The position numbers were made by a program, and so were the translations under genes. A DNA stretch of 64,000 nt. It comes from Viridothelium virens (taxonomy: Eukaryota; Ascomycota; Dothideomycetes; Trypetheliales; Trypetheliaceae). The notes beneath the pieces are model-generated. The model was not told the DNA's origin. It did not search any database and worked only from the letters and a program-made list of their open reading frames with translations. The stretch is from assembly GCA_010094025.1 (NCBI GenBank), contig ML991820.1, forward strand, positions 169,963-233,962, given 5' to 3'. Shown here piece by piece: positions 5,604 through 43,112 of this stretch; position 1 is the first letter of the stretch, and each line of letters opens with the position of its first letter.

Positions 5604-6144
5604 AGTTCATCTCCATAGGGAGGAATAGTTGGGCTCTTTGTGACCTATCTTGGCAAAATCTAGTGTGGTCGAAAGTATTAAGGCTAGGGGCAATCGAGGA
5701 AAACTCGTTGAGAGTCAATTTGCTAGGCACAAATTACATTGGGGGATTTGCGACCATCTTTCACGTTGGTTCTGGGCATGCAAAGATGCAGATCGACTGT
5801 ATGTATCGATATGTAGAACAAGTATCTGCTGCACTGCTGAAGGCCGCGTCCCAGTGTCACAGAAGCTTATAGGTACCTTGTCTTCAATTCGTGGTTACTC
5901 TGCATGTTGATCTTTCCCATTGACTACCTAAGGTACGTAGGCAGGTAGGTACGATTGATAGTGCGTAGATTGTCGCGCGCTATTCGGAGTGGGTCAAGAC
6001 TATCCCGGTCTACCAAAAGAGGGAAAGAGCGGATGGCAGAATTCTGACCCCGCCACCTGGCGTACTGGATTACATATCCTGTGGTCATGCCAATGGATCT
6101 TCTCTTAACGCCATGGCTCCAAAAAACCATGGCACTGCTTTTCA
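5604..6144. other. Intergenic, 541 bases
   Basis: Downstream of the complex I subunit gene and upstream of the OSGIN-like gene. Two overlapping open frames of ~90 codons at 5597-5910 resemble nothing and are probably chance. A GTACGTAGGCAGGTAGGTAC stretch lies near 5933-5952. No RNA gene is seen. Confidence 0.45.
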
Positions 6145-16671: not shown

Positions 16672-18612
16672 TGGCGCGTCCAGCTCTTCTGAGTCCCCCA
16701 AACCTATTTTGCCGATGTGATTTTCTCAATGTTGGAGACCGGTGGACTTGGAGCTGCTATGCCCGCAGCTTCCCAGAATTTCAAAAGTATAGGAAAAGAT
16801 GGAGAGGTTCGATGAACTCGAGCTTAAGAGATGAATTGGAATGGAAAATGTCGTAGGAGGGGTTTGAGAGAGTTTGGAGGGATTCGTTGTTGACTCGGGT
16901 GCGAGAGTCGTATTACTATGTCGTGTTGCGAGGCGGACTCTACTCGGTTGCCTAAGCTCCGGCTGAGGGCGGCGTTGTGGTCGTGGTCGCAGGCATACAT
17001 TTATCAAACCAGCGATATTGGCAAGAGGATGAGTGAAGACCAGATGAATCGGCGGGAAAGGGGGGCACTGGACAAGATCAAAGGCACAGAATTATGCTCG
17101 AAGCAGCGAACTGTCGGATAGAGAGAGAGAATGAATGGGTGACGATTAGGGTGCCTAGCGTATGAGGCTGACTGTGGACCTGATGTGGCAGTACTGCGCA
17201 GCGATCGCAGTCGCAAACCCCAGCACCCGTACGAGTGATGCAAGGCAACCCAACTGAGCCGCCTTCCGTCCTGTCTCACGCGTGGCGGGGGGCAGACGCT
17301 GACTGGGGAGGTGCCACCTTGACCGCAAGATGGTACTCTCTATGGAGGTAGGGGTGGTAAGGTATCAAAGTCGCGCCTTGACACCGCAAGAAGCCCGTCA
17401 CGAACTGGTCCTTTTGAGGGGGAAATTACGGATTGGGAGAGTTGGGAAAAAATTACTCGCGCATTGAACCCAGCCAGCAGGTTTCGTCTCACGGCCAAGC
17501 CGTCTGCGGTAACGAATAATCTTACGGATCCTTCGATAGTTTCGATCTGCCTCCTCTGCCTCGCTGTGAGCAGCCACGACAACGTGAGCTTCCCCTCCCA
17601 CCGCTCCGGACGAGCCGTAGTGCCACCGTTCTCCGTCATGCTGCTGCACTGCTGCTGCACCTACTCCTGCAACTCATGCTCATGTGGCGGCCCCGTGACC
17701 GCGCGCGTCTTCAAGCGTCCTCAAGCGTCCTCGACCGTCTTATTAGTGGTCTTCACGCACGACATCCCCTGAAATAGCAACTACGGGGCACGGACCTCTA
17801 GCATGACTGACCTCATAAGGCAGTTACCCCGTACTCCATACACGCCCACGCTCTGCACCGCCAGACAGGTTATTGAAATAATGCGCCATGCAAGCATCAC
17901 ACCGCAAGAACAATCATCCCACCTGCACTCACGCTTTCGAACTTGCAGAACAGGCAGATTGCCGGCCGAAGGATGATTAGACTTCCTTCCATACTTCTTC
18001 GAAAGATCTCATAGACGACCGGTCCTTCAGCCTGTCTGCATGCATCAATCTTCAAGCTCGCCTGCACCTTCATCGGCCGAACCGCTCGCATGATACGCTT
18101 CATTCCGCTCCCGTTTTTGTTTTCCCTGATCATGAAACAATCAAGGCCCATTGGCAAAGCAGCTTCCAATGCCGCATGTACGTCGCCTTTGCCTGGGCCT
18201 TGGGTGAGCAAATAATAGGTAAGTACCAAAGGTACCTTACCTACCTCATTAGTGCTCCAGAAGACCATGCAGACACACCAGCCTCGGCCGCTGCGACGCG
18301 GCCATGCCCTCCGTACCACCGCACGAAACACTTCAACCCCTACCAACAGTCAATTTCCGACACCCAGAGCGCAGACGACAACAAACGCTTTGGACCATTC
18401 GACCAAGTGATTCGCTAGTCAGGATCGGTTCAACCACTATGCAAAACATCGTCTCGCTTGAAACTCCTTTGCCACTCTGCTTCGGCTGTAGCAAATCCCA
18501 ATCCCGACACTCTGTCTCTTCAACCTCGCCTCGCTCAGTAACTTATACGATACGGCTCTCTTCTTCTCCTGATGCATGTCGCAGCTGCTGTGATTTCTGA
18601 CTCGCTGACCTA
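16672..18612. other. Intergenic, about 1.94 kb
   Basis: Upstream of the membrane protein gene and downstream of the histidine kinase gene, both on the minus strand. It holds an imperfect inverted repeat AGGTAAGTACC/GGTACCTTACCT at 18217-18242 and a small tandem CAAGCGTCCT near 17712-17731. Several open frames of 80-150 codons exist on both strands, but none shows a recognisable domain. I call no gene here. Confidence 0.45.
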
Positions 18613-27315: not shown

Positions 27316-28595
27316 TCCTTTCATCGGCCGCCACAGCCATTTCGTTTCTTGATAGTACTTTCGCGGACGACAGGCGCAGATGTCAAGTCATCAGGGCAGA
27401 GAGGAAACCATGGACATTTGTCGGATGCGTGTGCGTGATGAGGTTGTCCGACCTGGGCTGAATTGAAGTTACCAACCCCATTGTACGGGCATTGCGGGTA
27501 TTTGTGTTTCTGGGTACGGTCGCGGTGGTAAGGAACGGATGGGGCATGTAGGTCGGAAGAGGGGGTAACCTCCAATGTCGAGACGCGGCCTTGCACGACC
27601 TGATTGGTGTGTTATGGACAGTTGCAGGTTCCCCTCCTCCCTGGTTTTCTACTGGTCGTAACAGAAAGCATTCTCGATAAGTCCCTGTCAACTTTCCACA
27701 TTCAAGTGCTTTAACTCCGAAGTTTGGCATCTAGGTAGCTCAAGTCGGTTTTCATCTCCGAGCTGCTTTGTGACTGTGAGTCTTATAGTATGGCTTGATA
27801 ATGTTGAAGATCGACCCGAATCCATCCAAACTAGGCCTAGCGCACCTGTGAAACCACACATAAAACCTTTAGACCTAGATAGCTTCATAGAATCAAGACA
27901 TCAAAAGACTTCAATTTCAACAAATAATAAACATTAGGAATTCTGTTAATTTGGAGGGGAGTGGATTAAATACGCTGTCTTAACAAAAAACCTATTTGAT
28001 AGCGCCAAAATCGTCCCGGTTAATAGAGAAAGGGGTAAAGAGTATCATTATCGAATAGAATAGATGATTATGGCCTGTTGTGGGCTAGCACAGATTTTAC
28101 AATGTAATGGCACAGTCCCTCAAGCGTCGCCGCGACGCACGGGCCGTACGGTATGGAAAGGCTGCGTTCAGACTATCGTAGTGCCGGTTGCAGGGCGGAA
28201 AGTCACTAGAGTAGACTTATTCCCGGCAGAGCTAGATCTTTGTTGAGTTGTTTGTCAATTTTTATATATGTCTCAAACTCTCGACATATGAGAGACTCCA
28301 TCTTGTAACCCGCTAAGACATAGAATACCAGGTTTGTTATAGTCCGACCTTGTGGCTTGTGAGTATGTAGCCGCGCGTGTCTTGGCCTGCAAGTTCAGTT
28401 GGCCCTGTATGCCCGGATAAGAATAAGATAGGTATGCAGCACTATACAGAAATACTGCTTGGTCAAACCCGGGAAGATAAGGCTTTAGCCTTAGTACCAT
28501 TCCCATACAAGCGTTTGAGATTTTCTGACTCTTCGCGCTGACAGCTCTGTTCCTGTATACGAGAATTTTATATAGCTCTGAAAATTTCTAAATAC
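27316..28595. other. Intergenic, about 1.28 kb, A/T-rich in part, with one repeat copy
   Basis: The left border of the HET/NLR island. It contains the first copy of the dispersed repeat (about 27805-27945), annotated separately, followed by an A/T-rich stretch to about 28060. Frames on the minus strand at 27321-27730 with several Cys and His residues match nothing I know. Confidence 0.45.
27805..27945 (+). repeat. Dispersed direct repeat, copy 1
   Basis: Begins GAAGATCGACCCGAATCCAT and shares with 31328-31445 the blocks TAGCGCACCTG and the 26-base block running from GACCTAGATAGCTTCATAG into AATCAAG, plus TCAATTTCAACAA. The order and strand are the same, with small indels. I estimate four fifths identity by eye. 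No coding capacity. Probably a remnant of a transposable element. Confidence 0.7.
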
Positions 28596-31133
28596 TTACC
28601 TCAATCGTATCCATTTTCTTTGTACCGACCACTTGTCATTCATAATAGACACAGTACATAGTCCAACCCGAACAGCGTAATCCATGTGTTTCTCTATCAT
28701 CATCAAATAGTAACTTTCCCTATGCCTGTTATAAGCAAGCTCTATAAGCTCCAATTTTCCTAGCTGAAGAAGTTCATATAAGACCTTCGCCTGCCATGGA
28801 CCGCGAGAGATATAGCAAGTCATCTTGTATCCGTACAACCTGATATCGCCGGAACTGTGAAGAGAGATTTCGGCCGAATTTACACAGTCAACGTCCAGGA
28901 GCAAGACCTTCGGCAGGACAACGTGAGCGGGTAGGAGTTCTGATCCCACTAATTTAGCAGAATAAAGGTGCCGGAAGCTGACCCACGAATTCGGTTCTAA
29001 CTCCAAGCGTGCGTCGTGCAACCTGCCGTCCATCATAAGGCTTGCTTGGGGGAAATATATCTCGCCAGGCCATCCCATCCAAGACCAAGATGGAATTGAA
29101 GTTGGGCTTGGATGGCTTGAAGTCATGTCAATGGAAGAGCGTTCCCGAGCTCTAGTATTCCGGGGCCGGTCAAGAGGTCCTCGGCGTGCCCAGAGCAAAC
29201 TCGATGCGAAATGCTCCAGAACTTCGCCTGATGAACCAGAGAAGGAGACTCCCCAAAGCTGATGAACTTCTCTCTTCGCGAAATATCTCATGATACCTGC
29301 GAAAGCTTTCTGTCTGTCCTCTTCAAAAGTGAGAACTCTTTTAGAGTACTGAACCACTAGATTCTTATATAGTAGTTCTTTCGAATACGAATAATTGACT
29401 TTATTTCCGGTAAAACGACGCCCCGTATTCATGGACAGTATTCCTGATTGGAAAGAAGGATAGATCATGCCGTGAGGATTGTGAATCAGATTGATATCAG
29501 GAGCGATACTCTCGCTGCAGTGCATAGTATTACACTCGAAGTAGAATTGGTCGTCAGTGAAGACTACACGTCGCGTTGACAAGACAATTTCTTGCAGAGT
29601 CCAGCCTCTTTCTGCCCACTTTGATGAATGTATGCGGCGGTGCGGATGAAGTGTAGAAGTAAAGATGGTAATTCGTCCGATCTTTACAGTGCTTTGGGAT
29701 GTTCGAGACGTTGCATTAATGCCGGGAAGACCATAGTGACAATCTTGCCCACAGGCAGTTATAACTGTCAAGTCTGCGCCTCCGTATATTGAGTCCATTT
29801 GACTGATCTGATCATGCTTCTCCTCAGCGTTCTTTTGGTCGATACAGAGCCTGTCAACCCACAAATACTTGTAACCCAGAGCCTTGGCTACTACGAGGGT
29901 ATCCTGGATGGTTTTGGCAATCCTCGGGTCAAGACTCGGAGATCCATCGTCTTCTTTTGATGGTTCTCCATAGTGGCTAGTTGCCGTGCCCCATACATAG
30001 CTCAGTGCAACATAGGAAGCATTTTCTGGGGCAGACACTACCTCAAATGTCTGACAATTTATGAGTTTTAGGCCAGTGATCTGACTCTTATCATTCTGAC
30101 AAAGCGAGTGGCGAGAGGTACAGAAGTTTAACCAGTCCTTGGCCTGAGAGAGATCGGCGTTCTGCCCTAAGATTCGTGGGTTGAAGAGAAAAGTGTCATG
30201 TTGATCTTCCTCAAGGCAGAACAATCGTTCGGCATTTTCAGCTCGAAGTCGAAATGTCTCCCCATTCATACCAATCGGAACCACTCCGATGCAAGCGACG
30301 TCCTTTGCTCGATGCCAATCTCTACAAAGCCCAAACTTAATCGTTTTGCTTGTCTTGAGGTACGAGTATATCCGCAGCTGGTATTCCGAGGGAAGACTCT
30401 TGGACTGGATCCGAAGATGATAGAACAGATCGCACAAAGGACAGTATATACCCGTAGACAGATCGTTACAGTGGGTCCTGAGATCAGCAAGCAGAATTCC
30501 GTTGCTTTGATTCTGAAGAGAAGGAAAGTCGACGTCGAGAACCATCTGGAAATCGATTTGCTGACAATGTTCGCAGAGCGGGTGTTTTTCTGAGGCAGCA
30601 TCCCTACGCCTCTTTGGCGCTGGCAGTGCATGCTCGCAGGTGTCAAGTCGTCTTTTCCGCACACCACCTTCTACCTCAGTATCCTCGACTTCCGTATATG
30701 GCGCAACGGTGCTATCCTTCGTTGAGCCCGGTAATGACAAAGGCGTAAGAGGGTAGGATTCAGAAACCTCCGATGACGATGTCGAGATCGGTAGAAGAAC
30801 TGACGTAAATGTCTGAGTATATATCGAGCAATCAGACCAAGCGCTAGGGGCCTTCGTGTACCTGCGGTCGGAGACCTTTCTGAGAAAGATGACCGTTGCA
30901 TTCTGAGACTGCCAGTCGATCCATTGTTCAATGCCAGCTAGGACGAGTGGAGGTAAACGCACTCAGTCAGTTGAGGAAATCGCGCCTTGCAGCCGACGGA
31001 TTCTTGCTTTGTCGAATTCGTCACCTTGAAAATATGGTAGATGCTTAATTTGGAAAAATGAAACTGAAAGGACGGCTTGACAGAACTTTGCGGGCTGTTC
31101 GGCTTCGATCATGAAGCTGTTGTGGCGCAGCAT
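28596..31133 (-). CDS. HET-domain (heterokaryon incompatibility) protein
   Basis: Two exons on the minus strand, 31025-31133 and 28596-30937, with an 87-nt intron (CAAG|GTGACG..GTCCTAG). The first exon gives MLRHNSFMIEAEQPAKF and joins in phase to AGIEQWIDWQSQ, so a GTG-like start at 30962 is not needed. The product is 816 residues. Near residue 150 a Cys motif C..C (LCEHCQQ, CPLCDLFYH) precedes the HET core, as in many fungal HETs. The core reads YVALSYVWGTATSHYG, YLWVDRLCIDQKNAEEKHDQ and KWAERGWTLQEIVLSTRRVV, and PSWSWMGWPGEIYFP follows later. HET domains trigger programmed cell death on non-self recognition (family knowledge). Copies of a short direct repeat lie on either side. No effector or NTPase domain is fused. 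The frame appears intact. Confidence 0.88.
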
Positions 31134-31327
31134 CGTCAAGGCTTGCAGGCAGTGCTGTGGAACCTTCGGGCAATTTGGGTACGATGTGTCAGGCTTTTTA
31201 GTCTACTAAAGACAGTATACTGTAACCAGTTTGAACAGTTGTATTAAAAAGGCGGAGATACCGTTGGTAAAGAGGATTTTACCTCTTTATACAGCCTTGT
31301 AAAGGAATAAGCGCTTACTTCTGTTGG

Positions 31328-31445
31328 AAGATCAACCTGAATCCATCCTACTTAGGCTAGCGCACCTGAAACCCTACACAAACCCCTCCGACCTAGATAG
31401 CTTCATAGAATCAAGAGACATCAATTTCAACAACTTCTAGGAATA
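31328..31445 (+). repeat. Dispersed direct repeat, copy 2
   Basis: The counterpart of copy 1 at 27805-27945, in the same orientation. It starts GAAGATCAACCTGAATCCAT and carries TAGCGCACCTG, then GACCTAGATAGCTTCATAG and TCAATTTCAACAA. The two copies enclose the intact HET gene, about 3.4 kb apart. Confidence 0.7.
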
Positions 31446-31859
31446 TTAAGGCTGCATGAACACTAGTTAATTTTCATTTAAGCCAGAAAGAGTACTCTGG
31501 AACACCATAAAACAAGTCTCGCCAAGCGACCTTGCCTAAAAGCCTACAAGAGAGAAGTAGCTCTGTGACTGTAAGGTGAAGTAGTTTAAAAACTATTAGA
31601 TAACACCACCGATACTGGAGACTCTTACTTTGTCGCATAATCTGATCAAATAGGATACCCACCTGTTTACTGAGATGAACACACAGCGTCTAAAGAGACA
31701 TGTATAGAAGCTCGCGAATGCTGCTTGAATATGCTTTGTCGCTTAAATATACATTGCTGGACGCGTCTTCTTTCGGGATTAAAAATGGTTCTCGTCCAGA
31801 ACAAACAATAAAGCGAGAACTCGCCAATCGGCTAATTCGGTTTAATTAGAGAAGGTGAA

Positions 31860-32013
31860 TATGATAAGCTATAAGGATATTATGGAGGCGCGAGTGAAGC
31901 GCGCTGGGAAAGCTGAAGCCACCATGAGCAAGATAAACCGTAATTAGCAATACGTGTATCTTACACTAGATACGAATGCATCAAGGCTAATAGCGCCTAT
32001 CGTGCGGACGATC
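31860..32013 (+). pseudogene. Possible C-terminal remnant of a pogo/Fot1-type transposase
   Basis: The frame reads ISYKDIMEARVKRAGKAEA up to a stop, then continues in frame with SRLIAPIVRTI. The first part looks like the basic tail of fungal DDE_1 (pogo/Fot1) transposases, which often read (M)SYEDIEEAR.KRAAK. This is resemblance from memory over ~20 residues in A/T-rich, decayed sequence. The rest of the transposase is not recognisable upstream. Confidence 0.28.
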
Positions 32014-32780
32014 TAAATTTGGTACTCTTGTTACTTGAATTGATGTTATTAGGTAGATCCACACGAGTATCACACTCTTTATTATCGTATATCTTATTTA
32101 GAAATTGGCCTTTAACACACTTTCGGTATGATAAGATAGGAGCTGTAACTACCTTACCGAGGTTAAGAAGATAAAATAACTTTTAGATAGACGACATAAT
32201 ACCTATTGATATTGAGTATTCCAAGCTTCCAGCATCCATCACTTGTTTTAGATCTTGGTCATCCATCATCTCGTGAATACTTAATTCGCCTTTGTGTAAT
32301 GAACGACAATCGGTTCTATAAGCCAAATTATGAATAGTCGACTTTACTTTAAGCGCAGCTCTGAGTAAGATATCGATATTACAATTCTGAGAGATTGTGG
32401 TAGTAAACTGCGGTGACATAGAGTGCTCCTTGTATACCAAAAAAGGCAGCAGCGTATAAAAAGGGGCTTGAGTTGCGTACTCTGTAAGCACAAGGCTGAC
32501 GGTAGGAAAAAGTGCATGTTAATATCAAATTACACTTCGGCTCTTAAAACGCCAGAAATAGCGGCTGTGCCATCCACAGGCACAGAACTCTAGGCCACAC
32601 TCCTTCAGTGTACTGTCTACCAACAATCTGTCGTTATAATCCAGACGCATAGATCCAGCCAATTCGTGGCTGACATCGCAGGTATGAGGATGCGAAAGAC
32701 GCGAAGGACGTGCAATTGCTACTGGTGCGGCTGTCACCTGCTGTCGCTGGATGAGGCGGCGTGCGCGGCCTCTCCTGCGT

Positions 32781-32940
32781 TGACCAGCATGGCCAAGCTG
32801 GCATCGATGTATAGGAACCAAGGCCAATGGAAAGGGGTGAAGAAGCTGGAGGTACGAGTGACGGAGACAAGAAAGAGTGTACTGGGCGAGGAGCATCCAC
32901 ACACGTGGAGCAGCTCAAATAACCTCGCTTTTATGTAGAA
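32781..32940 (+). pseudogene. Relic of a kinesin-light-chain-type TPR repeat (NB-ARC/TPR NLR family)
   Basis: Reads LTSMAKLASMYRNQGQWKGV, then KKLEVRVTETRKSVLGEEHP and HTWSSSNNLAF before a stop. This is one full 42-residue TPR unit of the kind that makes up the C-terminal sensor of fungal NB-ARC-TPR or patatin-NB-ARC-TPR proteins, plus the start of another. No NB-ARC, kinase or patatin part is found on either side, so it is a fragment. It sits head-on to the HET pseudogene at 33.0-34.1 kb. Confidence 0.55.
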
Positions 32941-33035
32941 AGAGTAAAGTTGACAGATAGATCAAAGATGAAGAAAAAATTGAGCTCCCTAGACATCGAG
33001 TTTCAGAGTTTGAGAGCTCGAATATGGAAAATTTA

Positions 33036-34100
33036 CTATGCATTTTCGAGAATGCTTTCGCTTAGGGGTACCTTTCGTTTCGTAGGAGGGACGTTACTAT
33101 CTTGAGATACTCTGACCGGCGCTCTCCAATCTATCCGCAACAAGCTCAGAAATCTAGGCCGAGGGGCCGACCAGCGGCACGGTAGCCACAAAAGGTCCAG
33201 TGTGAAGTACGATATGGTCAGACCATAAAACGTTTCAAGACCACTTTCCGCTGCGTTAACAGCAATTCCTGCGAAAGCATTCAAAATGTCATTATCATTG
33301 GTAAAGTTTCGGTCAATGTAAGTCTGTAGGTAGTCTTGGTTGCGAGGATGGGTCCGATCGCTGAATCTGTGGTGGACGCCTAGAGAATCCCAATTCATTT
33401 GGTGGTCGCCTATATCAGCCTGATAGTACCCGAACTCCAGTGGAAATTGTTCCTGAGCGATGTTCTCGCGGCATCGTACGGTATTGCATCGATACTTATT
33501 TTGTCCTCCAAAGAAAATAAGTCGACGTTTCGCAAAGTACTCCTGATACCTAGAATGCAGTCAAAAGCACAGCTCAAATGTTGCGCATGGTACAGTACTT
33601 ACATCCATGCTCTCTTCGCCTAGGCTGAATCCTTGATACCTAGATAATGCAGAGGGAAGATAAGAGTCAATCCATTGGCAACTGAGATAACCTCTTGTTG
33701 CATTCGGCGAGGAGATGAAACAGCGGGAAGACCAGCATTCGCGTTTGAGCCAGTAGCTGCAGAGATAGTCAGGAATGCATGCTGATAGATGGTGTGCACA
33801 TGGCTCACCGTGCACTGCTTCATCATCCGAGATGATGCAGTAGAGTAAACATTGATCCACAGATAATGTTGCCCGCAAGATCTTGCAAGAGTCATCGCAT
33901 CAGGAATGGGTTTGAGCAAAATCCTATGAATTGGTCTTAAGGCCATCAGATAGGCAAGACTCTTGGAGATTCACAAGACTTCGAGAGAATTCAGCCTCTC
34001 CCCATACGCCGCCGTACCTTCATGCCGACTGTTGTGACGTTATGAACCTCGAGTTTCAGGAAAACCTTGGGATGCCTGATGAGAGACCATAACATGGTGT
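33036..34100 (-). pseudogene. HET-domain pseudogene
   Basis: Read on the minus strand. Recognisable blocks, in order, are LAYLMALRPIHRILLKPIPD, AMTLARSCGQHYLWINVY, then in another frame CIISDDEAVHGE, and back to IYQHAFLTISAATGSNANAG. After a 53-nt intron with intact GTAAGT and CTAG ends (33550-33602) come YQEYFAKRRLIFFGGQNKYR, DILNAFAGIAVN and SYFTLDLLWLP. Two frameshifts (near 33840 and 33800) and one in-frame TAG at 33620-33622, where a Trp codon is expected, break it. The usual RAWTYQE reads RAWMYQE, also a C-to-T type change. The N-terminal part beyond 33960 and the C-terminal part before 33200 are degenerate. The boundaries are approximate. Confidence 0.8.
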
Positions 34101-34230
34101 AGATTATGACTGAAGCCAACTCTTCGGGCCATACTTGCATGACACGCTGGATAACTCGAGGTTTGAGCGTGTGAGCTCTGACTTTGCCCTCACGCTAAGC
34201 CGTGTTCGACTCGCGACATCCTGTAGCTTC

Positions 34231-36993
34231 CTACATACTGGACGCATGATTGTGGTCACTAACATAACGTTCTATTACCGCTCCGTGCTGAAGAAGGATG
34301 CTTACGATTGTCTGGTGTCTTTGACTATTCGCTGCCTGGAGTGCACTACCAAACATGCCGCCTCGAGCATTAACGTCGGCTCCTTTCTCCAGGAGCATCT
34401 TCACTATCTCTTGCTGCCCCTTGTATAAAGCCGCCTGGAGTGCATTATAGCACGCGCCACCTTGAGCATTAACATCGGCTCCTTTCTCCATAAGTATCTT
34501 CACTATCTCTTGCTGCCCCGTATATGAAGCTGCCTGGAGTGCATTACCGTGGTAGCCGCCTTGGATATTGACGTTGGCTCCAGGTCCAGACAAAAGGCTC
34601 ATGGAAAGCCTTTGATATCTATTTGCACATAGTGTATAGAGCAGTGCCGGGTCCTTACTGACAAACAAGCCATGGTTTCTTAGATATAGGTCATCCACTG
34701 ATTGAATGAACTTCTTCCAAACTTCGAACCAGTTGCCGTTGCATTCTTGCAACCATTGCCAGACTTCAAATTTCTGGGCTGGAAAATGAGGTAGATCATG
34801 GAACCTAGTTCTGTCATCAGGGAGTGCCTTGTTTGCAAAGTTGAACACGGAAGCCATTGCATATTCCATAAACGGATATGTATCGCGCACTTCGGCAATC
34901 GGTTTTCTGCTTATCCACGTCATATCCATCAATCTGATGTACTCCCGACAACAAGACCACAGCCGTTGGTGACTGGCGCAGCCAGGGTCTGGCTTCAGCG
35001 TCGGATCAAGCTTCTGCAGGCGTTGGTTTCGCAGAAGAAAGTCATTGACCGATTGATGGATAAATTGCACCGTCGACCTAGCTCCTGGTCTGACCTCGAT
35101 AAGTCCTTTTGAGGAATCTGTGATACGTCTCTGAATGATTTTGTCCGTGGGCCTAGTATGATGCCTCTGCTGTATCAGCTGCGGAGCTGCTTTCGTCATC
35201 ACAGCCCAAAAAAGCTCTTTCGGGTTAAGCGGATTGGGACTGAACAATACCCACTGCAGCATGAGCACTGTCTCAGCTTTGTGTGTTTCATCTTTGGCCA
35301 GCATGGCGTCAAACACCTTTTCCAGATCGCAGGGTAGATCATCTAGCATCTTCTGTGTCTCTTCGACCCGACCAGCGCGAGTTGCCTTGTTGAGCATGGC
35401 AACGACAAGAACAGCCCACAGAAATACCCCGTCTGCTTTTCTCTCGATTACATGCCCAGCCTCCTCGTTCTCTATATCTAGCTTGTCAGAAACGTATTTG
35501 ACGATATCTTGCCGGTGCTTTTCGCTGCTTTCCACAATTAATTCAAGCTTCTTCTTTATGTCGATCAAAGGGTAGTGACGGCTTGAGAGACAGATTCTGA
35601 GAGTGGACTTCGATCGAGTAGCCTTGATGCTCAACATCTCAAGCATATCAACAACATCGCCCACATCTGCATTACCACACTCGTCGAGCGCGTCAACAAA
35701 TAGAAGAGTCGGCTTCGAATGCCGTTGCTTGATCTCAGAAATGATGAACTCGCACAAGTCTGATGTCCGCCATTCCAGCTCTCCAGCTTCGTACATTGTC
35801 TGCTTCTCGTGGAAGCGTAGGATGAAGCGATCACGAATGGCATTATCTCCCTGCATGAGCTGATATACGATAGACCGCAACAGTCCTAACGCAGTCTTCT
35901 CCAGTCGCTCACCCCGAGCATTAAAGAAATATGCCAACATCAGCTGGTCACCAAATTCCTCCTTACAATAGTTTAGAGCGTGCTTCATCAGCGTCGATTT
36001 CCCAGCTCCTGGCTTCCCCTTGAGCCAGAGTACTCCATTATGGTCTGCTAGGTCGGTCTGGTCTCGCCATTTGCGGAACTCTGTCGTCTCGAACAGCCAC
36101 TCGCATGTGTCGGGGTGGGCAGAGGCTATGTCGTTCTGCCGAGCATCGAGGGTCAGGAAGCCAAGAGAGCGAAGGCAAGCTGTATGATTCTCTTCGATGA
36201 TCCGCTCGTAGCCTTCATGTCTGACAAAGGGATTCTTTTGCGATTGCTCCGTTTGCGCTTCTATCTCTTTCATAAGGCGTTTACTTGCGTGGTGTTCTCC
36301 CTCGCCATATATTAGTGGCAAGGAGACGTCGAAGATTCCCAGCAAACAGTAAATCCTATCTTCCTCCACTGTTGTCATGCGCTTCGTAGCCCAGCTTATA
36401 CGATCATCAATACTGAACTCCTCGAGGCTGTATTTCGTTAGCGCTCTGATGGGGATTCTCGTAGCCTCGTAAATTCCTTGTTCCAGCGATATCTTATTGC
36501 CCAACTTCTTGCCATTTGCAGAGAAAAACTCGACAGTGGCCGGTGCAAGGAGCTCCTGCAATGTCCAGCCTCGAGAAAACCACCTACTCGTCCGAAAAGC
36601 GTGTCCCCAAGTGATCGGGAATGCTTGAGCATCAACAAGCTCATCTGGGACATGTACGTCTGCGAGATACACATAACATTTGGTTGCCTGCCGATACCAG
36701 CGAAACATGCTGTTGATAGCCGTATTGAGCTCGTTGACGTCATGCTTATTGATACAGCACGTATCTACCCAGAAGTATCGAAGCCCATCCGCAGCCGCCT
36801 GCTTCTGGCAAAAACGTATCTTATCATAGCCAGCCTTATTCTCGATAGTACCGCTTCCCAAATCTTGAAAGCTGACCTCCTGGCTGTTATCTGTGCGCCA
36901 TGTATGAGACAGTATTGCGTAGTCGGGGACATTACCGCGGTCGAAGGTGCGTAGGATGACTTTATGGTCGTCGTCTTCCGTTAAGAGGCGCAT
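34231..36993 (-). CDS. HET-NACHT-ankyrin NLR-type incompatibility protein
   Basis: A single uninterrupted frame of 920 residues from an ATG at 36993. The HET domain (about 1-240) shows DYAILSHTWR, YFWVDTCCINKHDVNELNTA, RGWTLQELLAP and EDRIYCLLGIFDVSLPLIYG. The NACHT NTPase has a P-loop GKPGAGKST at 326-334 and a Walker B LLFVDALDEC at 430-439, then SSRHYPL and the winged-helix-like GVFLWAVLVV and FIHQSVNDFLL segments. The C-terminus carries three 33-residue ankyrin units at 805-903, each of the type GADVNAQGG..NALQAA...GQQEIVK. This is the architecture of fungal NLR-like receptors related to Podospora HET-E/HET-D, with ankyrins in place of WD40 repeats. Such proteins sense non-self and signal cell death through the HET domain (family knowledge). 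Only three ankyrin units is few. The gene appears intact. Confidence 0.94.
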   Translation of the reverse strand: MRLLTEDDDHKVILRTFDRGNVPDYAILSHTWRTDNSQEVSFQDLGSGTIENKAGYDKIRFCQKQAAADGLRYFWVDTCCINKHDVNELNTAINSMFRWYRQATKCYVYLADVHVPDELVDAQAFPITWGHAFRTSRWFSRGWTLQELLAPATVEFFSANGKKLGNKISLEQGIYEATRIPIRALTKYSLEEFSIDDRISWATKRMTTVEEDRIYCLLGIFDVSLPLIYGEGEHHASKRLMKEIEAQTEQSQKNPFVRHEGYERIIEENHTACLRSLGFLTLDARQNDIASAHPDTCEWLFETTEFRKWRDQTDLADHNGVLWLKGKPGAGKSTLMKHALNYCKEEFGDQLMLAYFFNARGERLEKTALGLLRSIVYQLMQGDNAIRDRFILRFHEKQTMYEAGELEWRTSDLCEFIISEIKQRHSKPTLLFVDALDECGNADVGDVVDMLEMLSIKATRSKSTLRICLSSRHYPLIDIKKKLELIVESSEKHRQDIVKYVSDKLDIENEEAGHVIERKADGVFLWAVLVVAMLNKATRAGRVEETQKMLDDLPCDLEKVFDAMLAKDETHKAETVLMLQWVLFSPNPLNPKELFWAVMTKAAPQLIQQRHHTRPTDKIIQRRITDSSKGLIEVRPGARSTVQFIHQSVNDFLLRNQRLQKLDPTLKPDPGCASHQRLWSCCREYIRLMDMTWISRKPIAEVRDTYPFMEYAMASVFNFANKALPDDRTRFHDLPHFPAQKFEVWQWLQECNGNWFEVWKKFIQSVDDLYLRNHGLFVSKDPALLYTLCANRYQRLSMSLLSGPGANVNIQGGYHGNALQAASYTGQQEIVKILMEKGADVNAQGGACYNALQAALYKGQQEIVKMLLEKGADVNARGGMFGSALQAANSQRHQTIVSILLQHGAVIERYVSDHNHASSM
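34285..34581 (-). repeat. Three 99-bp tandem ankyrin-coding units
   Basis: Each unit codes 33 residues. Units 1 and 2 are very alike in DNA: both carry TTCACTATCTCTTGCTGCCCC and GCCTGGAGTGCATTA (shown on the plus strand) at the same offset. Unit 3 is more diverged. The DNA-level likeness suggests recent duplication or homogenisation. Confidence 0.8.
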
Positions 36994-38030
36994 TGCGGAG
37001 GATGCATGAGAGCAGGTTTAATAGATACAGGTGTCAGTGAGTCTGGTGAGCTGTCATACAGCTCTTAAACACACTTGACGGTGGCGTGCCCTGTAAAGGC
37101 CCATAGATCATATCTGCTTCTGACTGGTGATGCAGCCTTAGATAGGTATTGAGTACAGGGCACGTAGTCGGCACTCCGAGGCGCAGATGTGGGATTGCGA
37201 CCGCCACAGTGACGTACCGTACTCAACTAAGCAGTATCTGCACGCTGCTATGACCTTGTATTTACTTGTTATTTTACACTTATCAATACCGGAGACATTA
37301 GAATAGAGAATTGAAAGACTATTTTGCGATCGTGCTTATCACAGAAGCGCGCGTTCTCTATTCAGCGACTTGGTTGCAGGGCTGGAAGGATATGTTGTCC
37401 AGTAATGTCAATTCGACAACCACAACCTTTACCATGAATGACTCACGGTTTCTGCTGAACGGCATAGTATATAAGCACGCCCTAGCTCACGGTACAATGT
37501 TGCACTTTAGGAATCAACAGCCACCGCAGATGTTCTGGTTGAGTTTTAAGAAATAGGGGAAGGGGTAACAAGAATGGCCTGTTCGTTAGGTTTTAGCTCA
37601 GTCCATTGTCAGCCTAGTGCTTGTCCCGGAACGCAGAGCAGTTCTGTGTCAGCCAGGAGAAATTAGACTAGGCGTAGCTACGCCTCTGGCAGCCACAAGC
37701 TTGGCATAACATTATTCAAAATGAATTACACAGTAATGAATGGATTGGACGTGTGGGTGGCGTTCGGAGGTGATTAGAATCGTAACACATGGTTTAGACT
37801 ACCGATCAGCGTGGTGATATTGTATGAATGATCCTCATACGGCAACCACAGGGCTGATAAAAAGTTCTTTGCGTAATGCAGAGGCTCTCAGGCTCGAATA
37901 CTGCTAGTCTATAAGTTTGAGGAAGGATGACAGCTCGGGAAAGAGCGGGAAAGATCGGCTTCAAGGATCAAAAACTCAAAAGTCGGTAGCGGCCGTTGCC
38001 AAGCTACTAGTAACTGATGCCAGCAAGGGC
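36994..38030. other. Intergenic, about 1.04 kb
   Basis: The divergent region between the NLR gene (-) and the prolyl hydroxylase-like gene (+), holding both promoters. A frame of ~80 codons at 37311-37556 has no recognisable domain. No repeat is seen. Confidence 0.45.
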
Positions 38031-38897
38031 ATGATGGCACTTGACCGTTCTGCAATTGAATACGCTTTCTACGTTCTTGTCGCAGCCTCTATCTACCTTG
38101 CCGTCGGCGCACCAGGTCTGCCCCCAAACCTCCTTCAACTTCACTCCTCTAACCCCGACGGCATCCCAATATCACAAAGCCAAATCGAAGCACTAGTTCA
38201 TCCCGACCCAAGTCTCGACTGCTCCCCTCATTCCCATACCATTCACATCCTCTCATCCCATCCCCTGATCATCTACATCGAGAACTTCCTCTCCCCCTCC
38301 GAATCCGCACACCTCATCTCCCTCAGCGAACCCCGCTGGGAACCCTCCACCATCTTCAACGGCGACGCCGAAATCCACGACCCCACCATCCGCAACTCCT
38401 CCAAAGCCCTCCTCCCCCGCGACACCACCGTCCAATGCATCGAACAGCGCGCCCTCAGCCTCCAGGGCTGGCCCCGCCACACCTTTATCGAGCGTCTCTG
38501 GACGCAGGCGTACGGTGAAGGGGGCCACTACACGCACCACTTCGACTGGGGCATCGCGACCAAGCACGCGCGTCGTGTGAGCAGCTTCATGGTGTACCTG
38601 TCTGGCAACTGCGGCGGCGGTGGCACGAACTTCCCGCGGGTTGCGAGGCCGGCGGCGGGAGGGGAGTGGGACGGGTTTTTGGAAGAGGAAGGGGAGGGAG
38701 GGGCCGAGGGCACGACGTTCAAGGCTCTGGCGGGGAATGCGGTGTTCTGGGAGAACTTTGATGCGGAGGGGAGAGGCTATAAGGAGATGATTCATGCGGG
38801 GATGCCGGTGAAGAGGGGGAGGAAAGTTGGGTTGAACGTCTGGAGTTGGTATCAGGCTGGGTATAAGCCCGATACCAATGACAAGTATGAGCTATGA
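38031..38897 (+). CDS. Prolyl 4-hydroxylase-type 2-oxoglutarate/Fe(II) oxygenase
   Basis: A single exon of 288 residues from the ATG at 38031; the frame is open upstream but has no earlier ATG. An N-terminal hydrophobic anchor, AFYVLVAASIYLAVGAPG, suggests an ER-membrane type II protein. The catalytic jelly roll shows SHPLIIYIENFLSPSESAHL, then the iron ligands His170 and Asp172 in HHFDWG, the distal His255 in MIHAGMPV, and a basic residue (Lys265, KRGRKVGLNVWSWY) for 2-oxoglutarate. FMVYLSGNCGGGGTNFPRV is the typical strand-turn. Length and motif spacing fit the alpha-subunit-like P4Hc family of fungi. It would hydroxylate proline or a similar residue in an ER or secreted substrate, which is not identifiable. 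GC content rises in the 3' half, as in nearby conserved genes. Confidence 0.87.
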   Translation: MMALDRSAIEYAFYVLVAASIYLAVGAPGLPPNLLQLHSSNPDGIPISQSQIEALVHPDPSLDCSPHSHTIHILSSHPLIIYIENFLSPSESAHLISLSEPRWEPSTIFNGDAEIHDPTIRNSSKALLPRDTTVQCIEQRALSLQGWPRHTFIERLWTQAYGEGGHYTHHFDWGIATKHARRVSSFMVYLSGNCGGGGTNFPRVARPAAGGEWDGFLEEEGEGGAEGTTFKALAGNAVFWENFDAEGRGYKEMIHAGMPVKRGRKVGLNVWSWYQAGYKPDTNDKYEL

Positions 38898-41204
38898 AGA
38901 TATTCTCAATGAGCCAACCGAAACTCGCAAGGCACTCTGCACGAAAGCATCGGCAAATATTCTGCCGAGATTGCTGTCCACTTGTCTTATCCTCTCCGCC
39001 GTTCGACTTCGAAGCCTTGTGATCCGAGAGTTGTCCGGTATCAATTAGCCTAAAGAGAGACTATTGTGATAACAGGTCTGACCGACATGGGATAAAGGTT
39101 CAATAAGGCGATGGCGACTCATGATAGTAGAAATGCGTTCCGAGTCAAAGTGAGGGTGCTTGTCCTCAAAACCGTCGCGAAACTTCGCCAAAGGACACTT
39201 GAGCTCAACTACTGCATTCAATTTTCTGACTTATCTAGGATCAAGCGCAGTGAGCCTAGAGGCTTATAACCTGATATCTAGTTCAAGCATCATACGTTCA
39301 GAATCCTGTTGTGGTGATTCGGCCCATCGACTCGAAAAAGGCGCGAAGTCAAAGCTTGTTGCCTACCCAAGACCGTCAGATACTGGCCCCTCACATTCCC
39401 TAATGAGCTCAAATATCGCAGATACTCTCTCATCACTCATGCTCTCGAAGAGAATGTATACCAACTTGTTCTATCCCGGGACGGCACAGCTTTCTCAGGA
39501 GAGCTGCCGACTTGAACGTGTCCGCATTCCTGTCACTATTCTGACCTTACTCCCCTGAATCGCCTCACTTCTCTAAACTCAAGCTCTGCTTGCGAATGCA
39601 GATAGTGATCGTGTTGTAGTGAGTACCAACGTTGACGTTCATCAACTCTCCACGACATCCTTGTAGAGCTATCTGAAGCTATACGGTCCGCAGACTGAAC
39701 ATAGTCAATGCGAAACTAGCTCATATCACCGTAAAGAGGATTTCAAGGCCCCTAACCAGAGGTATTCGAAGTGAATCTTATTGGAAGGTTCCGAAGCCAC
39801 TTACAGTTGCTCTACCAGCGCGCTATCATTTTGCTCCAGGCAGCCTTCAACCTCGTGCATGATGACGCGACCGCTGCAGAAATGCGACAAACCCGAGCCA
39901 TGTTTAGCAAAGCCCACAAAGGCAGTCTTTCTTCACATCTTCTGGAGCTCCAATCAACTATTTCAAACAGGTACATCATAGTTCGCCCAGCACATCAATG
40001 ACAAGTAGACGATCACTACTCTTCGCCATCTTTGCCCTCCTCAGTAACATTACGATAGATCAGTTTTCGGCAGCTCTTGCACCGGGGCCCGAGTGCGGAC
40101 ATAATTACTCTACGTTCAACAATTATACTTCGCCGCTACAATGTGACTTAATCTAATTTCAAGAAGTACAGGGGAGTTCATTTAATCCCAGTGTCAAGGA
40201 AAAGACCATCTATGCTTGGGTCGAGATTTGCTTTAGGCCTCCTCTTGCGTGGGCGCCTGTCTGTTTTGTAAGTTTCGCTGCACTCAATAGCTGATGAACC
40301 CAATAAGTGTCTGTCCTCGGTGGAGTGACGGTTTACCAAATAGCATATTGCTTGCATGGCCGTGTCACTGACTTCTCTTGTGCAAATTCTACATACCCGT
40401 GATGGGATTGTAGCCATGTGGTGCAACATATACAGTGGTTCGCTTAAGTGGTGCGAATTGGCCCTAGCACACACCCTTACTCTACCATACTTGGGGCCCA
40501 GCGATCGGTCGCGCTGGACGAGGTCGGTCGCGCCGATACACGTCGCCTCGCGGCGTGAGGACATCCACGTGACGTCCAGTGCAGTATCCCAGTGCTTGCT
40601 ACTACAAAAAAGAAGGTAAGAGGTAGGTGATCTGTCGTAAAACTCCTAGAATATCTAGAGCAAGTGCTACCAGGCGGAAAGGCAGGCGGCGTATCGCTTC
40701 ATCGTGTCAGCCTTGCCACGTCACAAAAAGGCTGGATTTCTAAATTCTCAATAGAAAAGGAACCCTAATTAGAAGAGGAAATCCCGACTCTTCCATTTCG
40801 GATAAACCCCCACTTTACCTTGGAATTAACTCTGCCCGATTGAGCGGCTCCTGGATCGTTCCGCCACTTTTATGATACAGCTCAATATCAGAAATTCATA
40901 GGAGACTAGAGAAATCATCTTGTTCCAAGAATTTGCTAAGAGGCTCTCGAAGTGATTGCAAATGCAGTAAGTAGTCCAGCATTTCTTGATCATACCAGAA
41001 CAATCCCACAGTCTTGACTCCATCACAATTTGCTTCTATACTTCTAGAACTTCTGTCCTGGCATCCTGATACCACAATATGATTCTGAACTAATGTTGTA
41101 CGATGTCCCACAGATCGTGCGTTAGACGATTTGACATCCCGACGGACTCGAACGACCGCAATTCGTCACACATATAACCAAGCTCTCACCACTTGCTTGA
41201 CAAG
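38898..41204. other. Gene-poor stretch of about 2.3 kb
   Basis: Between the prolyl hydroxylase-like gene and the broken HET gene. Frames of 60-130 codons occur on both strands (for example 39160-39558 + and 40178-40564 -), but none shows a domain, signal peptide or consistent splice pattern. I see no recognisable repeat or RNA gene. It may hold decayed sequence. Confidence 0.4.
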
Positions 41205-43112
41205 ATGTGGCTCTTGAATATTAAGGATGTCGTACAGAAACAAAAGTTGACTCTTGAAGAATTTAATAGCGAGGATCAAGTACCCTATGCTATCTTATCT
41301 CACACATAGGGCCATAAGCAGGATGAGGTCTCTTTTGAAGACTGTCAAAATGAAGGGCAATTTCCGAACAAGGCCGGGATTGAGAAAGTCAGCAATGTCT
41401 GTAAAAAAGCGTCAGAGGAGAATTTTCAGTATATCTGGATTGATACATGTTGTATCAATAAGAACAGCAGGTAAGTTACTCTGGAGTAAACCTTCTTTCC
41501 TCCCAACTCAAGCCCATGAATTAACGTTTAAGTTACTTTGCTTATCTTTCCATAGCTCTGAACTTCAGGAGGCTCTCAACTCAATGTATAGGTGGTATCA
41601 GCACTCCACCAAATGCTATGCATTCCTTGCTGATATTAGAAAACCGGATGGTGAGCTGGGGAAAAGTAGATGGATGACGCGAGGATGGACACTTCAAGAA
41701 CTTATCTCACCAGCTTATATGGATTTCTATGATATGGATTGGTCATTTATTGCAAAAAGAGAGATATTAGCAGAGACAATTGCGGAGTATACTGGTATCC
41801 ATATTACCATCCTTCGCCATGAACGTGCTTTATCCGAATTCAGCATCGCTCAGCGCATGTCATGGGCTGCCAATCGTCATACAACACGTGTAGAAGATAG
41901 AGCTTATTCACTGTTTGGAATTTTTGACGTACATATGTCACTGCTCTACGGAGAAGGTTCCAACGCCTTTATCAGGTTACAAGAAGAACTGATCAAGAAG
42001 TCGACAGACCACTCAATTCTTGCATGGGATCGTGACATAGAGCTCAAGGAGTCTGATGGGCATCGTGGTTCTGACCTGCCTACTGACCGTCATGAATGGT
42101 CTGGTTATGATCTGTTCGCCTCGTCTCCAGATGACTTTCGCAACTGTGGGAATGTCGTTATCCGACACACGGAAGTGCCCAAAACGGTCGAACTTGGCAA
42201 TAAGGGCCTTCAGATCAGTGCACTAATTGTACGTGGGAGATCTAGAGAAGAGGTGAAGGAAGAGAGAAAACCAAAAGCTCCAAAAGAAGAATTCAGAGAC
42301 TTCGAGCCATTTTCGTACCCAGTGACGATGGTATTGAACTGCGGTATCGAAGATGACTTAATCAAAGTGCATTGCCTCCACCTGGATCAGCGCCTTCCAG
42401 GTGTCTATTTCGTGATAACCTCAACGGCAGCGCTCGTAAGCATAAGTGGATACTGAAGAATGCATAAATAATGCAATGAATACACATAAATATCACAACA
42501 TTAAATCCAAATCTAATCAATATATATACAATAAATCGATTTAGATGTCAAAGAATTCATATTTATTATATACACATTATTTATATTTAAGGTTGGTGTT
42601 GTGATATTTATTTTCCAAGTTTTTTATGAAAATTCATAAATTATGCTTACGAGCCCTGCTCAACGGGCGAACGCCGTTTACACACGCTCTATGGTATCGA
42701 AGCTAAGAAGTGGGGGAACGAAGAGACTGTGTATCTAGGACGCAAATATCCGATCCGAGACATGCCTCTAACCTCTACCTGGAGACAAGCGATAGTCATC
42801 GTTTCCGACAGCGAGGTATTCAAACCTCAAGTTGTAGAGCGATATCCGCCCGAATCATGGCATGCGACTGATTTACATTGGTCTCGTCAATCGTTGCTGA
42901 ACGGACCTCCAACCCTCGGAGGGCTTCGCTTTGGCTTCCAGGACGATGCCTGGCCTTCTTTCGTCTTGAATTTCTCATACGATGATCCATCTACATACCG
43001 GGGACACATAAACCTGGAGAAAACTGAACCTGGTATTGATCTGGCACAAAGTTGCACTCGTTCACTGCGTCTCCACTGCAATATGTACGAATGCTCTTTA
43101 TATATTGCGTAA
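41205..43112 (+). pseudogene. HET-domain gene broken by a nonsense codon and a hAT-type MITE
   Basis: Exons: 41205-41470, then after an 85-nt intron (GTAAGT..CATAG) 41556-42427, then 42667-43112. The last two are separated only by a MITE and its duplicated target. The HET domain reads VPYAILSHT, a TAG at 41307-41309 where the family has Trp, then YIWIDTCCINKNSS, SMYRWYQHSTKCYAFLADI, RGWTLQELISPAYMDFYD and VEDRAYSLFGIFDVHMSLLY. After HET comes a beta-rich C-terminal part, ending MYECSLYIA. Skipping the MITE plus one target copy keeps a single frame to the stop at 43112, about 527 codons in all. There is no NACHT domain; it belongs to the short HET class. With a stop at codon 35 and an insertion after residue ~379, it should be non-functional unless the readings at those points are wrong. 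Confidence 0.87.
42428..42658. mobile_element. Non-autonomous hAT-type MITE, 231 bp, with 8-bp target-site duplication
   Basis: The left end reads CAGCGCTCGTAAGCATAA. The reverse complement of the right end reads CAGGGCTCGTAAGCATAA. A second matched block, ATAAATATCACAACA, occurs ~60 bases inside each end. The element is A/T-rich inside and has no coding capacity. It is bounded by perfect 8-bp direct repeats CTCAACGG at 42420-42427 and 42659-42666. Ends starting CAG plus an 8-bp duplication are the signature of the hAT superfamily. The perfect duplication suggests a fairly recent insertion. Confidence 0.88.

What the first reader, a model, noticed from the sequence alone, without database searches (positions are those of the whole stretch)
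27700..43112. A HET/NLR incompatibility island mixing intact, decayed and transposon-hit members
Within ~15 kb there are two intact-looking HET genes (28.6-31.1 kb and the HET-NACHT-ankyrin gene at 34.2-37.0 kb), two broken HET genes (33.0-34.1 and 41.2-43.1 kb) and a TPR fragment of NB-ARC/TPR type. The surroundings are A/T-rich and carry repeat copies and a hAT MITE. Seen in sequence: the domains and breaks. Inference: this is a fast-evolving non-self recognition cluster with birth-and-death turnover, and the NLR may pair with the solo HET as partners.
Basis: partly seen in the sequence, partly recalled or inferred. Interest (0 to 1): 0.75.

Follow-up and report, generated by a model that had tools for sequence, protein, structure and literature searches.

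The report
Fungal self-recognition gene cluster with casualties
A fungal chromosome stretch holds four cell-death recognition genes side by side, two apparently intact and two broken, and a dead copy of one of them elsewhere in the genome has kept its sensor repeats while the rest of the gene was mutated away.

Summary
Four HET loci lie within 12 kb: a solo HET (28.6-31.0 kb), a HET-NPHP3_N/NACHT-ankyrin receptor (34.2-37.0), a decayed HET (33.0-34.1), and a HET with an in-frame stop and a hAT-type MITE inside it (41.2-43.1). A TPR fragment lies among them. This is the largest HET group in the genome (1 of 2000 random placements matched it; window size chosen afterwards). The MITE has three identical copies, each with its own 8-bp target duplication, so it moved recently.

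Turnover is supported: the receptor's closest paralogue, on contig C164, was destroyed by RIP (47 stops, all TAA/TAG). NLR-solo HET pairing is not: solo HETs lie no nearer to NPHP3_N-type NLRs than chance.

The least ordinary result is outside the window. In C164 the ankyrin array largely escaped the RIP that ruined the gene body. Three more contigs (C175, C122, C173) show a similar but less secure break at ankyrin or TPR arrays. This is published for WD40 arrays of two Podospora pseudogenes; here it reaches other repeat classes, and for C164 no donor for the published exchange explanation was found. Function, polymorphism and incompatibility remain untested.

The parts
28596..30962 (-). HET1: solo HET-domain ORF, 788 codons (HET domain at window 29589-30014); 5' end unresolved (possible upstream exon to about 31.15 kb)
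   Evidence: PF06985 117.5 bits; genome search; weak intron candidate 30938-31024
32594..32935 (+). TPR fragment, probably a remnant of an NLR-type TPR gene (TPR match 32780-32902)
   Evidence: PF13374 31.7 bits; best genomic relative is a TPR array on C149, 55% over 51 aa
33036..34120 (-). HET3: decayed HET gene; pieces in different frames (by eye), stop inside the HET match (33605-33910)
   Evidence: PF06985 41.6 bits in one piece, 41.4 bits with one TAG; no RIP signature
34231..36993 (-). HET-NPHP3_N/NACHT-ankyrin NLR, 920 aa, single intact ORF (HET 36652-36921, NPHP3_N 35578-36111)
34273..34569 (-). ankyrin array of the NLR: three 33-aa units, the first two 81% identical in DNA
41205..43112 (+). 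HET4: broken HET gene of the same HET subfamily as the NLR (49% over 146 aa); in-frame TAG at 41307-41309 and interrupted by the MITE
42428..42658 (.). hAT-type MITE, 231 bp, imperfect terminal inverted repeats (CAGCGCTCGTAAGCATAA / CAGGGCTCGTAAGCATAA, by eye), inside HET4
   Evidence: three identical copies in the genome, each flanked by its own 8-bp duplication
42420..42427 (.). left copy of the 8-bp target-site duplication CTCAACGG
42659..42666 (.). right copy of the 8-bp target-site duplication
27802..27904 (+). copy of a dispersed ~100-bp repeat family, 0.7 kb downstream of HET1
   Evidence: 15 matches in the genome, a lower bound; alignment of 12 copies
31322..31433 (+). second copy of the same repeat family, on the other side of HET1

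Best explanation
The stretch is a turnover hotspot for fungal immune-type (HET/NLR) genes. Its one complete receptor, the 920-aa HET-NPHP3_N/NACHT-ankyrin protein, most likely works as a STAND switch: the C-terminal ankyrin array binds a self or non-self protein, the NACHT-type ATPase oligomerises, and the N-terminal HET (TIR-related) domains are brought together and trigger death of that hyphal compartment. The solo HET (HET1) is a second, separate candidate effector. New members arise by duplication and by change of the repeat array. Old members die by stop codons, frameshifts and MITE insertion inside the cluster, and by RIP for the duplicate on another contig. Shown here: domains, breaks, clustering, MITE mobility, RIP of the paralogue. 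Inferred from family knowledge: ATPase switching, HET-driven death, ligand recognition by the ankyrin surface.
For: Domain architecture and intact ORF. Largest HET group of the genome; 9 neighbouring HET pairs within 12.5 kb against 3.6 expected. MITE with three identical copies and three different 8-bp duplications. Paralogue on C164 with 47 stops (28 TAA, 19 TAG, 0 TGA) and 597 C>T/G>A against 113 reverse changes. Repeat number 3 against 6 between the two copies; 17 of 33 unit positions vary over seven units compared, most at 6, 28, 1 and 7, while 16 are invariant (some of the copy's variants may be RIP changes). With transitions discounted, non-terminal units are more alike within a copy (0.939 and mean 0.935) than between copies (mean 0.859). 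A HET match stands directly upstream of NPHP3_N on the same strand at 5 loci in this genome, this one included.
Against: No strain or sister-species data were available, so polymorphism, selection and expression are untested. The window array has only three units, and its internal identity (81% DNA for units 1-2) is below the 85% used to pick conserved repeats in PMC4986451 (passage). The terminal units do not follow the within-copy pattern: window unit 3 is closer to the copy's unit 6 (0.859) than to window units 1-2 (0.747, 0.788). Two low-confidence HET models gave no significant structural match, so the TIR link was not confirmed here. The cluster window of 12.5 kb was chosen after seeing the locus; at 5 kb the largest group is 2 (expected by chance), and groups of three within 12.5 kb occurred in 119 of 2000 simulated runs.
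Confidence: 0.75

Rival explanations
1. A defence island with working pairs: the NLR and the adjacent solo HET are co-selected partners (sensor and helper), like nwd2 and het-S in Podospora.
For: HET1 and the NLR are the two intact members, same strand, about 3.3 kb apart. An adjacent NLR-effector pair is known in Podospora (PMC3321046 title in the listing; PMC4344463 start of abstract in the listing).
Against: HET loci not fused to NPHP3_N are not enriched near NPHP3_N loci at 5, 10 or 20 kb. The NLR already carries its own HET effector. HET1 belongs to a different HET group: a genome search with it finds 55 other places at 22-40% identity, and the window NLR is not among them.
Confidence: 0.1
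2. A passive graveyard: a low-constraint, repeat-tolerant stretch that collects HET genes by neutral drift, with no recognition function for any member today.
For: Two of four HET loci are dead, a TPR remnant lies beside them, and MITE-type repeats are inside or near them. HET loci are enriched near contig ends in general: 34 of 97 within 20 kb against 19.4% expected.
Against: The 920-codon NLR and the 788-codon HET1 ORFs are open although their neighbours are dead. The NLR shows no RIP although its paralogue was destroyed.
Confidence: 0.12
3. The HET/NLR genes are xenorecognition (immune) genes aimed at parasites or mycoviruses rather than vegetative incompatibility genes.
For: The reviews say that only a small fraction of HET and NLR genes act in allorecognition, e.g. 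5 of 125 HET loci in Podospora (PMC10197012, PMC12881547; passages).
Against: No data here separate the two roles. This is a finer reading of the best explanation rather than its opposite.
Confidence: 0.5

Closest known systems
HNWD/NWD family of Podospora anserina (het-d, het-e; HET-NACHT-WD40), with the RIP-inactivated NWDp1 and NWDp2 (PMC1805685)
   Same: HET effector, NACHT-type switch, C-terminal repeat array; family members killed by RIP while their repeat arrays keep normal composition (section 6 read)
   Different: Ankyrin instead of WD40. The dead C164 array has 10 stops in six units (Podospora: none in NWDp2, one in NWDp1), and its only DNA match besides itself in this assembly is the window NLR at 70%.
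Fungal NLRs with HET, NACHT and ankyrin parts as surveyed in PMC4986451 and PMC9815663
   Same: HET is a frequent N-terminal domain of fungal NLRs and ankyrin the more abundant repeat in ascomycetes (passages)
   Different: Only three ankyrin units, internal identity below the 85% used there. The exact combination HET-NACHT-ANK was not in the passages I saw (known to me from recall only).
Clustered, partly subtelomeric HET genes of Neurospora (PMC10684091)
   Same: Non-random clustering of HET genes, more of them towards sequence ends (passages)
   Different: Here contig ends, not telomeres; no doubled TTAGGG/CCCTAA in the window
hAT-type MITEs
   Same: Short element, terminal inverted repeats beginning CAG, 8-bp target duplications, identical dispersed copies
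   Different: Few copies (3 identical plus one at 76%), and no intact hAT transposase found (one degraded dimerisation domain)

Membership tests
Fungal HET-NLR (STAND) receptor: window 34231-36993 | N-terminal HET domain above curated cut-off | tested here: met
   PF06985 47.1 bits, cut-off 22.5
Fungal HET-NLR (STAND) receptor: window 34231-36993 | central NACHT-type NTPase | tested here: met
   NPHP3_N 121.1 bits over cut-off 24.8; NACHT 25.6, just under 26.7; GKPGAGKST and LLFVDALDE read in the ORF as Walker A and B (motif names recalled)
Fungal HET-NLR (STAND) receptor: window 34231-36993 | C-terminal superstructure-forming repeats | tested here: met
   Ank_2 65.5 bits, Ank 54.5 bits; 33-aa units
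Fungal HET-NLR (STAND) receptor: window 34231-36993 | repeats with high internal conservation (over 85%) | tested here: not met
   units 1-2: 81% DNA, 76% protein; unit 3 against them 58-59% DNA. A property of a subset of the family, not of membership
Heterokaryon incompatibility (het) gene | allelic or non-allelic incompatibility between strains | not testable with these tools
   no strains, no crosses
Heterokaryon incompatibility (het) gene | intraspecific polymorphism or balancing selection | not testable with these tools
   one genome held; the tool offers no relatives for it
Adjacent NLR-effector gene pair | effector genes found next to NLRs more often than chance | tested here: not met
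   3 of 92 within 5 kb against 3.2; 6 against 6.1 at 10 kb; 14 against 11.3 at 20 kb; NPHP3_N-type NLRs only
HET domain as TIR relative | TIR-like fold | tested here: inconclusive
   models with mean pLDDT 53.8 and 58.9; no PDB match at E 0.001 or better; a profile of 11 HET domains finds no PDB sequence up to E 10
hAT MITE: window 42428-42658 | terminal inverted repeats, 8-bp target duplication, several copies | tested here: met
   three identical copies at three unrelated sites, duplications CTCAACGG, GGACAAGT, CGGGTGCC
RIP-inactivated NLR (C164 paralogue) | directional C>T/G>A changes, TAA/TAG stops, depleted CA and TG | tested here: met
   597 against 113; 28 TAA, 19 TAG, 0 TGA; CA/TA 0.17-0.23 in the gene body against 1.18-2.00 in the window copy. 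The CpA preference is modest: 0.59 CA, 0.57 CG, 0.37 CT, 0.27 CC

The most novel reading that the evidence does not exclude
In this fungus, RIP that destroys NLR genes stops at, or is erased from, the superstructure-forming repeat array, whatever the repeat class. In C164 the body (residues 1-800) has 570 of 1163 aligned C/G sites turned to T/A, the ankyrin part (801-880) 25 of 125. C175 (ankyrin), C122 (TPR) and C173 (ankyrin) show a composition break of the same kind. Dead NLR copies would then be kept as reservoirs of sensor cassettes. The C164 array carries stop codons (one position shared by 5 of 6 units) and no closer donor was found in the assembly, so the sparing there would come from within the array (its own homogenisation, or early divergence below the RIP threshold) and not from import of repeats from active genes, the explanation proposed for the Podospora WD40 case. 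Probability lowered from 0.35 to 0.30 on rechecking: stop density in the C164 array (10 of 198 codons) equals that of the matched stretch as a whole (47 of 894), CA/TA in the C122 array is only 0.43, and the other three contigs end inside their arrays.
Probability: 0.3. Interest if true: 0.72.

Novelty: new member of a known kind. Interest (0 to 1): 0.46.

Why it matters
Fungi carry about a hundred HET and NLR genes with few known ligands, and whether such genes form 'defence islands' is left for broader analysis in PMC10197012 (passage). Here one genome gives a partial answer: HET genes do cluster, but those not fused to an NLR do not sit beside NPHP3_N-type NLRs more than chance. The array spared in a RIP-killed copy offers a clean test of how NLR sensor repeats diversify.

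Tried and rejected
HET-TIR link by structure: two AlphaFold jobs with shallow alignments (5 and 9 rows) gave mean pLDDT 53.8 and 58.9, and Foldseek against PDB gave no match at E 0.001 or better. A few TIR-type and deoxyribosyltransferase chains appear far below significance; I do not count them.

Relatives elsewhere: viral contigs gave no relative (0 of 5 pattern matches); genome contigs gave 4 of 7, all in one bacterial MAG (CPC1) whose contigs look fungal and whose HET matches have stops in frame. Of no use for synteny.

RIP as killer of the in-window pseudogenes: rejected. HET3 and HET4 have TA/AT 0.65 and 0.71 and CA/TA 1.39 and 1.05, like the rest of the window.

Tandem duplication as source of HET1 and HET3: rejected. 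They are only 27% identical over 82-108 aa; the direct repeats flanking HET1 belong to a dispersed family.

Repeat import from active loci as source of the C164 array: not supported; DNA search with the array found only itself and the window NLR at 70%. A DNA search of limited reach, so not excluded.

My first alignment of C164 used the wrong strand and aligned 4 residues; redone. Counts merged 98 HET matches to 97 and 128 NPHP3_N matches to 111 (same-strand pieces under 600 bp apart); lengths of 146 of 175 contigs were interpolated. 'Fused' meant HET upstream of NPHP3_N on one strand within 1.5 kb, so some HETs counted as solo may belong to NLRs of other build.
Full report
What is there. Gene content and genome size point to a filamentous ascomycete (my inference; no name was available). 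Pfam finds HET in a 788-codon ORF at 28596-30962(-) (117.5 bits) and, in the 920-codon ORF 34231-36993(-), HET (47.1), NPHP3_N (121.1), NACHT (25.6, just below its 26.7 cut-off) and ankyrin repeats (Ank_2 65.5). A piece of the 33.0-34.1 kb stretch on the same strand scores 41.6 bits for HET; the genome search scores the same place with a TAG inside. By eye its parts lie in several frames. The fourth HET, on the other strand, has an ATG at 41205, an in-frame TAG at 41307-41309 and a 231-bp insertion at 42428-42658. A TPR fragment (TPR_10, 31.7 bits) sits in an open stretch at 32594-32935(+). A 2OG-Fe(II) oxygenase gene (37917-38897) lies inside the cluster. Of ten ORFs sampled from the flanks, six have ordinary domains (histidine kinase, FAD-binding enzyme, OPT transporter in two pieces, RabGAP in two pieces) and four have none.

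Is it more than chance? Six-frame search finds 98 HET matches in the genome (97 after merging); the four on contig C50 all lie in this island. With 97 loci placed at random 2000 times, a group of four within 12.5 kb occurred once, and within 25 kb in 15 runs; at 5 kb the largest observed group is only two, as expected by chance. Neighbouring pairs are in excess: 5 against 1.6 at 5 kb, 9 against 3.6 at 12.5 kb, 13 against 6.9 at 25 kb. HET loci are also over-represented within 20 kb of contig ends (34 of 97 against 19.4%, P 2e-4), NPHP3_N loci not (26 of 111, P 0.17). Caveats: contig lengths were partly interpolated, contig ends are not telomeres, uniform placement ignores gene density, and 12.5 kb was chosen to fit the locus.

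Do NLRs and solo HETs pair? Of 92 HET loci not fused to an NPHP3_N domain, 3 lie within 5 kb of one (3.2 expected), 6 within 10 kb (6.1) and 14 within 20 kb (11.3). There is no such enrichment. NB-ARC-type NLRs were not counted.

The MITE. The inserted element has imperfect terminal inverted repeats starting CAG and an 8-bp duplication, CTCAACGG. Two further copies are identical over the 230 bases searched and lie at unrelated sites (C76, C44), each with its own 8-bp duplication (GGACAAGT, CGGGTGCC); a fourth match is 76% identical. This is recent hAT-type movement. The only hAT dimerisation domain found in the assembly is degraded, so the mobilising transposase was not seen.

How the receptor's family turns over. 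The NLR's best paralogue is on the small, A/T-rich contig C164: 424 of 881 aligned residues identical, 47 stops of which 28 are TAA, 19 TAG and none TGA. Of the 43 stops that fall in aligned positions, 26 stand where the NLR has Gln or Trp. Changes from NLR to copy are 597 C>T/G>A against 113 in reverse. CA/TA is 0.17-0.23 in the copy's HET, NPHP3_N and following parts, against 1.18-2.00 in the window gene. This is the signature of RIP as described in PMC1805685 (section 6). The CpA bias is modest (0.59 CA, 0.57 CG, 0.37 CT, 0.27 CC), so heavy or repeated RIP has to be assumed. The window copy shows no such signature, and neither do the two dead HET genes of the island: inside the island genes died by stop, frameshift and MITE; outside, by RIP.

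The sensor array. The window gene has three 33-aa ankyrin units, the dead copy six. Across units 1-2 of the window gene and 1-5 of the copy (stops set aside), 17 of 33 positions vary: 1-2, 6-9, 15-17, 19-20, 22, 25 and 27-30; the highest entropies are at 6, 28, 1 and 7. From general knowledge of ankyrin folds, 6-8 is the beta-turn tip and 15-17 the adjoining helix face, the usual binding surface. RIP may have made some of the copy's variants. With transitions discounted, units are 0.939 alike within the window copy (units 1-2) and 0.935 on average within the dead copy (10 pairs of units 1-5), but 0.859 between copies (10 pairs), which suggests that each array evolves as a unit. I left the terminal units out of these means; they pair across copies (0.859) better than with their own array in the window gene (0.747, 0.788).

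The array is spared from most of the RIP. In the dead C164 copy, 570 of 1163 aligned C/G sites in residues 1-800 are T/A, but only 25 of 125 in residues 801-880 (Fisher P 2e-10). Unit by unit over the whole array the figure is 63 of 310, against 43 of 284 in the reverse direction, with the rate lower than in the body in each of the four dinucleotide contexts. GC is 0.46 in the array against 0.24-0.30 in the body and 0.31-0.39 in the flanks; CA/TA is 1.24. The window gene shows no such contrast (array 0.50, body 0.47-0.51), so the effect is not inherent to ankyrin codons. The array is not pristine: 10 stops in 198 codons, the same density as the matched stretch as a whole (47 in 894), with one stop position shared by 5 of 6 units.

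Other places. C134 turned out not to be RIP-mutated. C175 has an NPHP3_N stretch at GC 0.19-0.23 and an ankyrin array whose first 250 bases are 0.44-0.56 (CA/TA 1.07), falling to 0.36-0.38 at 251-400. C122 has a HET with 13 TAA and 3 TAG at GC 0.20-0.28 and a TPR array (TPR_12, 56.2 bits) at about 0.44, but CA/TA there is still only 0.43; what lies between was not identified. C173 has a 399-codon open ankyrin array at 0.48-0.52 (CA/TA 0.62-1.20) beside a flank of 0.26-0.40; the rest of its gene is not on the contig, so that it is an NLR is a guess. In these three the contig ends inside the array, so an assembly join cannot be excluded; in C164 the array is internal. The case for sparing therefore rests mainly on C164.

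What is known. PMC1805685 reported the same for WD40 arrays of two Podospora pseudogenes and explained it by exchange with active loci (section 6 read in full; other passages). My searches listed no paper extending it to ankyrin or TPR arrays (open-licence library only, listings only, so not proof of absence). HET-NLRs, the proposed TIR relation of HET, ankyrin sensors and clustered HET genes are all known (PMC4986451, PMC9815663, PMC10197012, PMC12881547, PMC10684091, PMC12222747; passages). The island is therefore a new member of a known kind; the spared array is the least ordinary part.

Mechanism and limits. I commit to the STAND-switch model: ankyrin sensing, NTPase oligomerisation, HET-driven compartment death. 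No step of it was tested here. My attempt to confirm the TIR-like fold failed, with low-confidence models from shallow alignments, and a profile of this HET subfamily finds no sequence in the PDB.

Noticed in passing
G000 contig C149 (18,444 bp): HET-NPHP3_N-ankyrin at 1542-5746(+), TPR at 14296-14958(-), HET at 16746-17474(-): A second compact NLR neighbourhood: a HET-NPHP3_N-ankyrin receptor and, about 8.5 kb away, a TPR array and HET in tandem that may be one HET-TPR receptor.
   Followed up: partly
window 27802-27904 and 31322-31433; L008-L019: A ~100-bp dispersed repeat family (15 matches listed, a lower bound; the 14 besides the query are 75-89% identical). By eye most aligned copies start near TGTTGAAG and end TTTCAACA, with 5-bp flanking duplications in some, so probably another MITE family.
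   Followed up: partly
G000 C76:60836-61065 and HET at C76:62873-63574: One of the two other identical MITE copies lies about 1.8 kb from another HET gene of the same subfamily as HET4.
   Followed up: no
L056-L059 (NYXK01000244, NYXK01000005, NYXK01000080): A MAG labelled Deltaproteobacteria (CPC1) holds fungal-looking HET genes, probably eukaryotic contamination.
   Followed up: partly
window 43989-46376 (-): A long Ser/Thr/Pro-rich repeat protein (795 aa) with strong GC skew borders the island, looking like a cell-wall or GPI-anchored protein.
   Followed up: no
G000 C173:9500-10699: About eleven very similar ankyrin units in one open frame, cut by the contig end, beside RIP-mutated flank.
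   Followed up: partly
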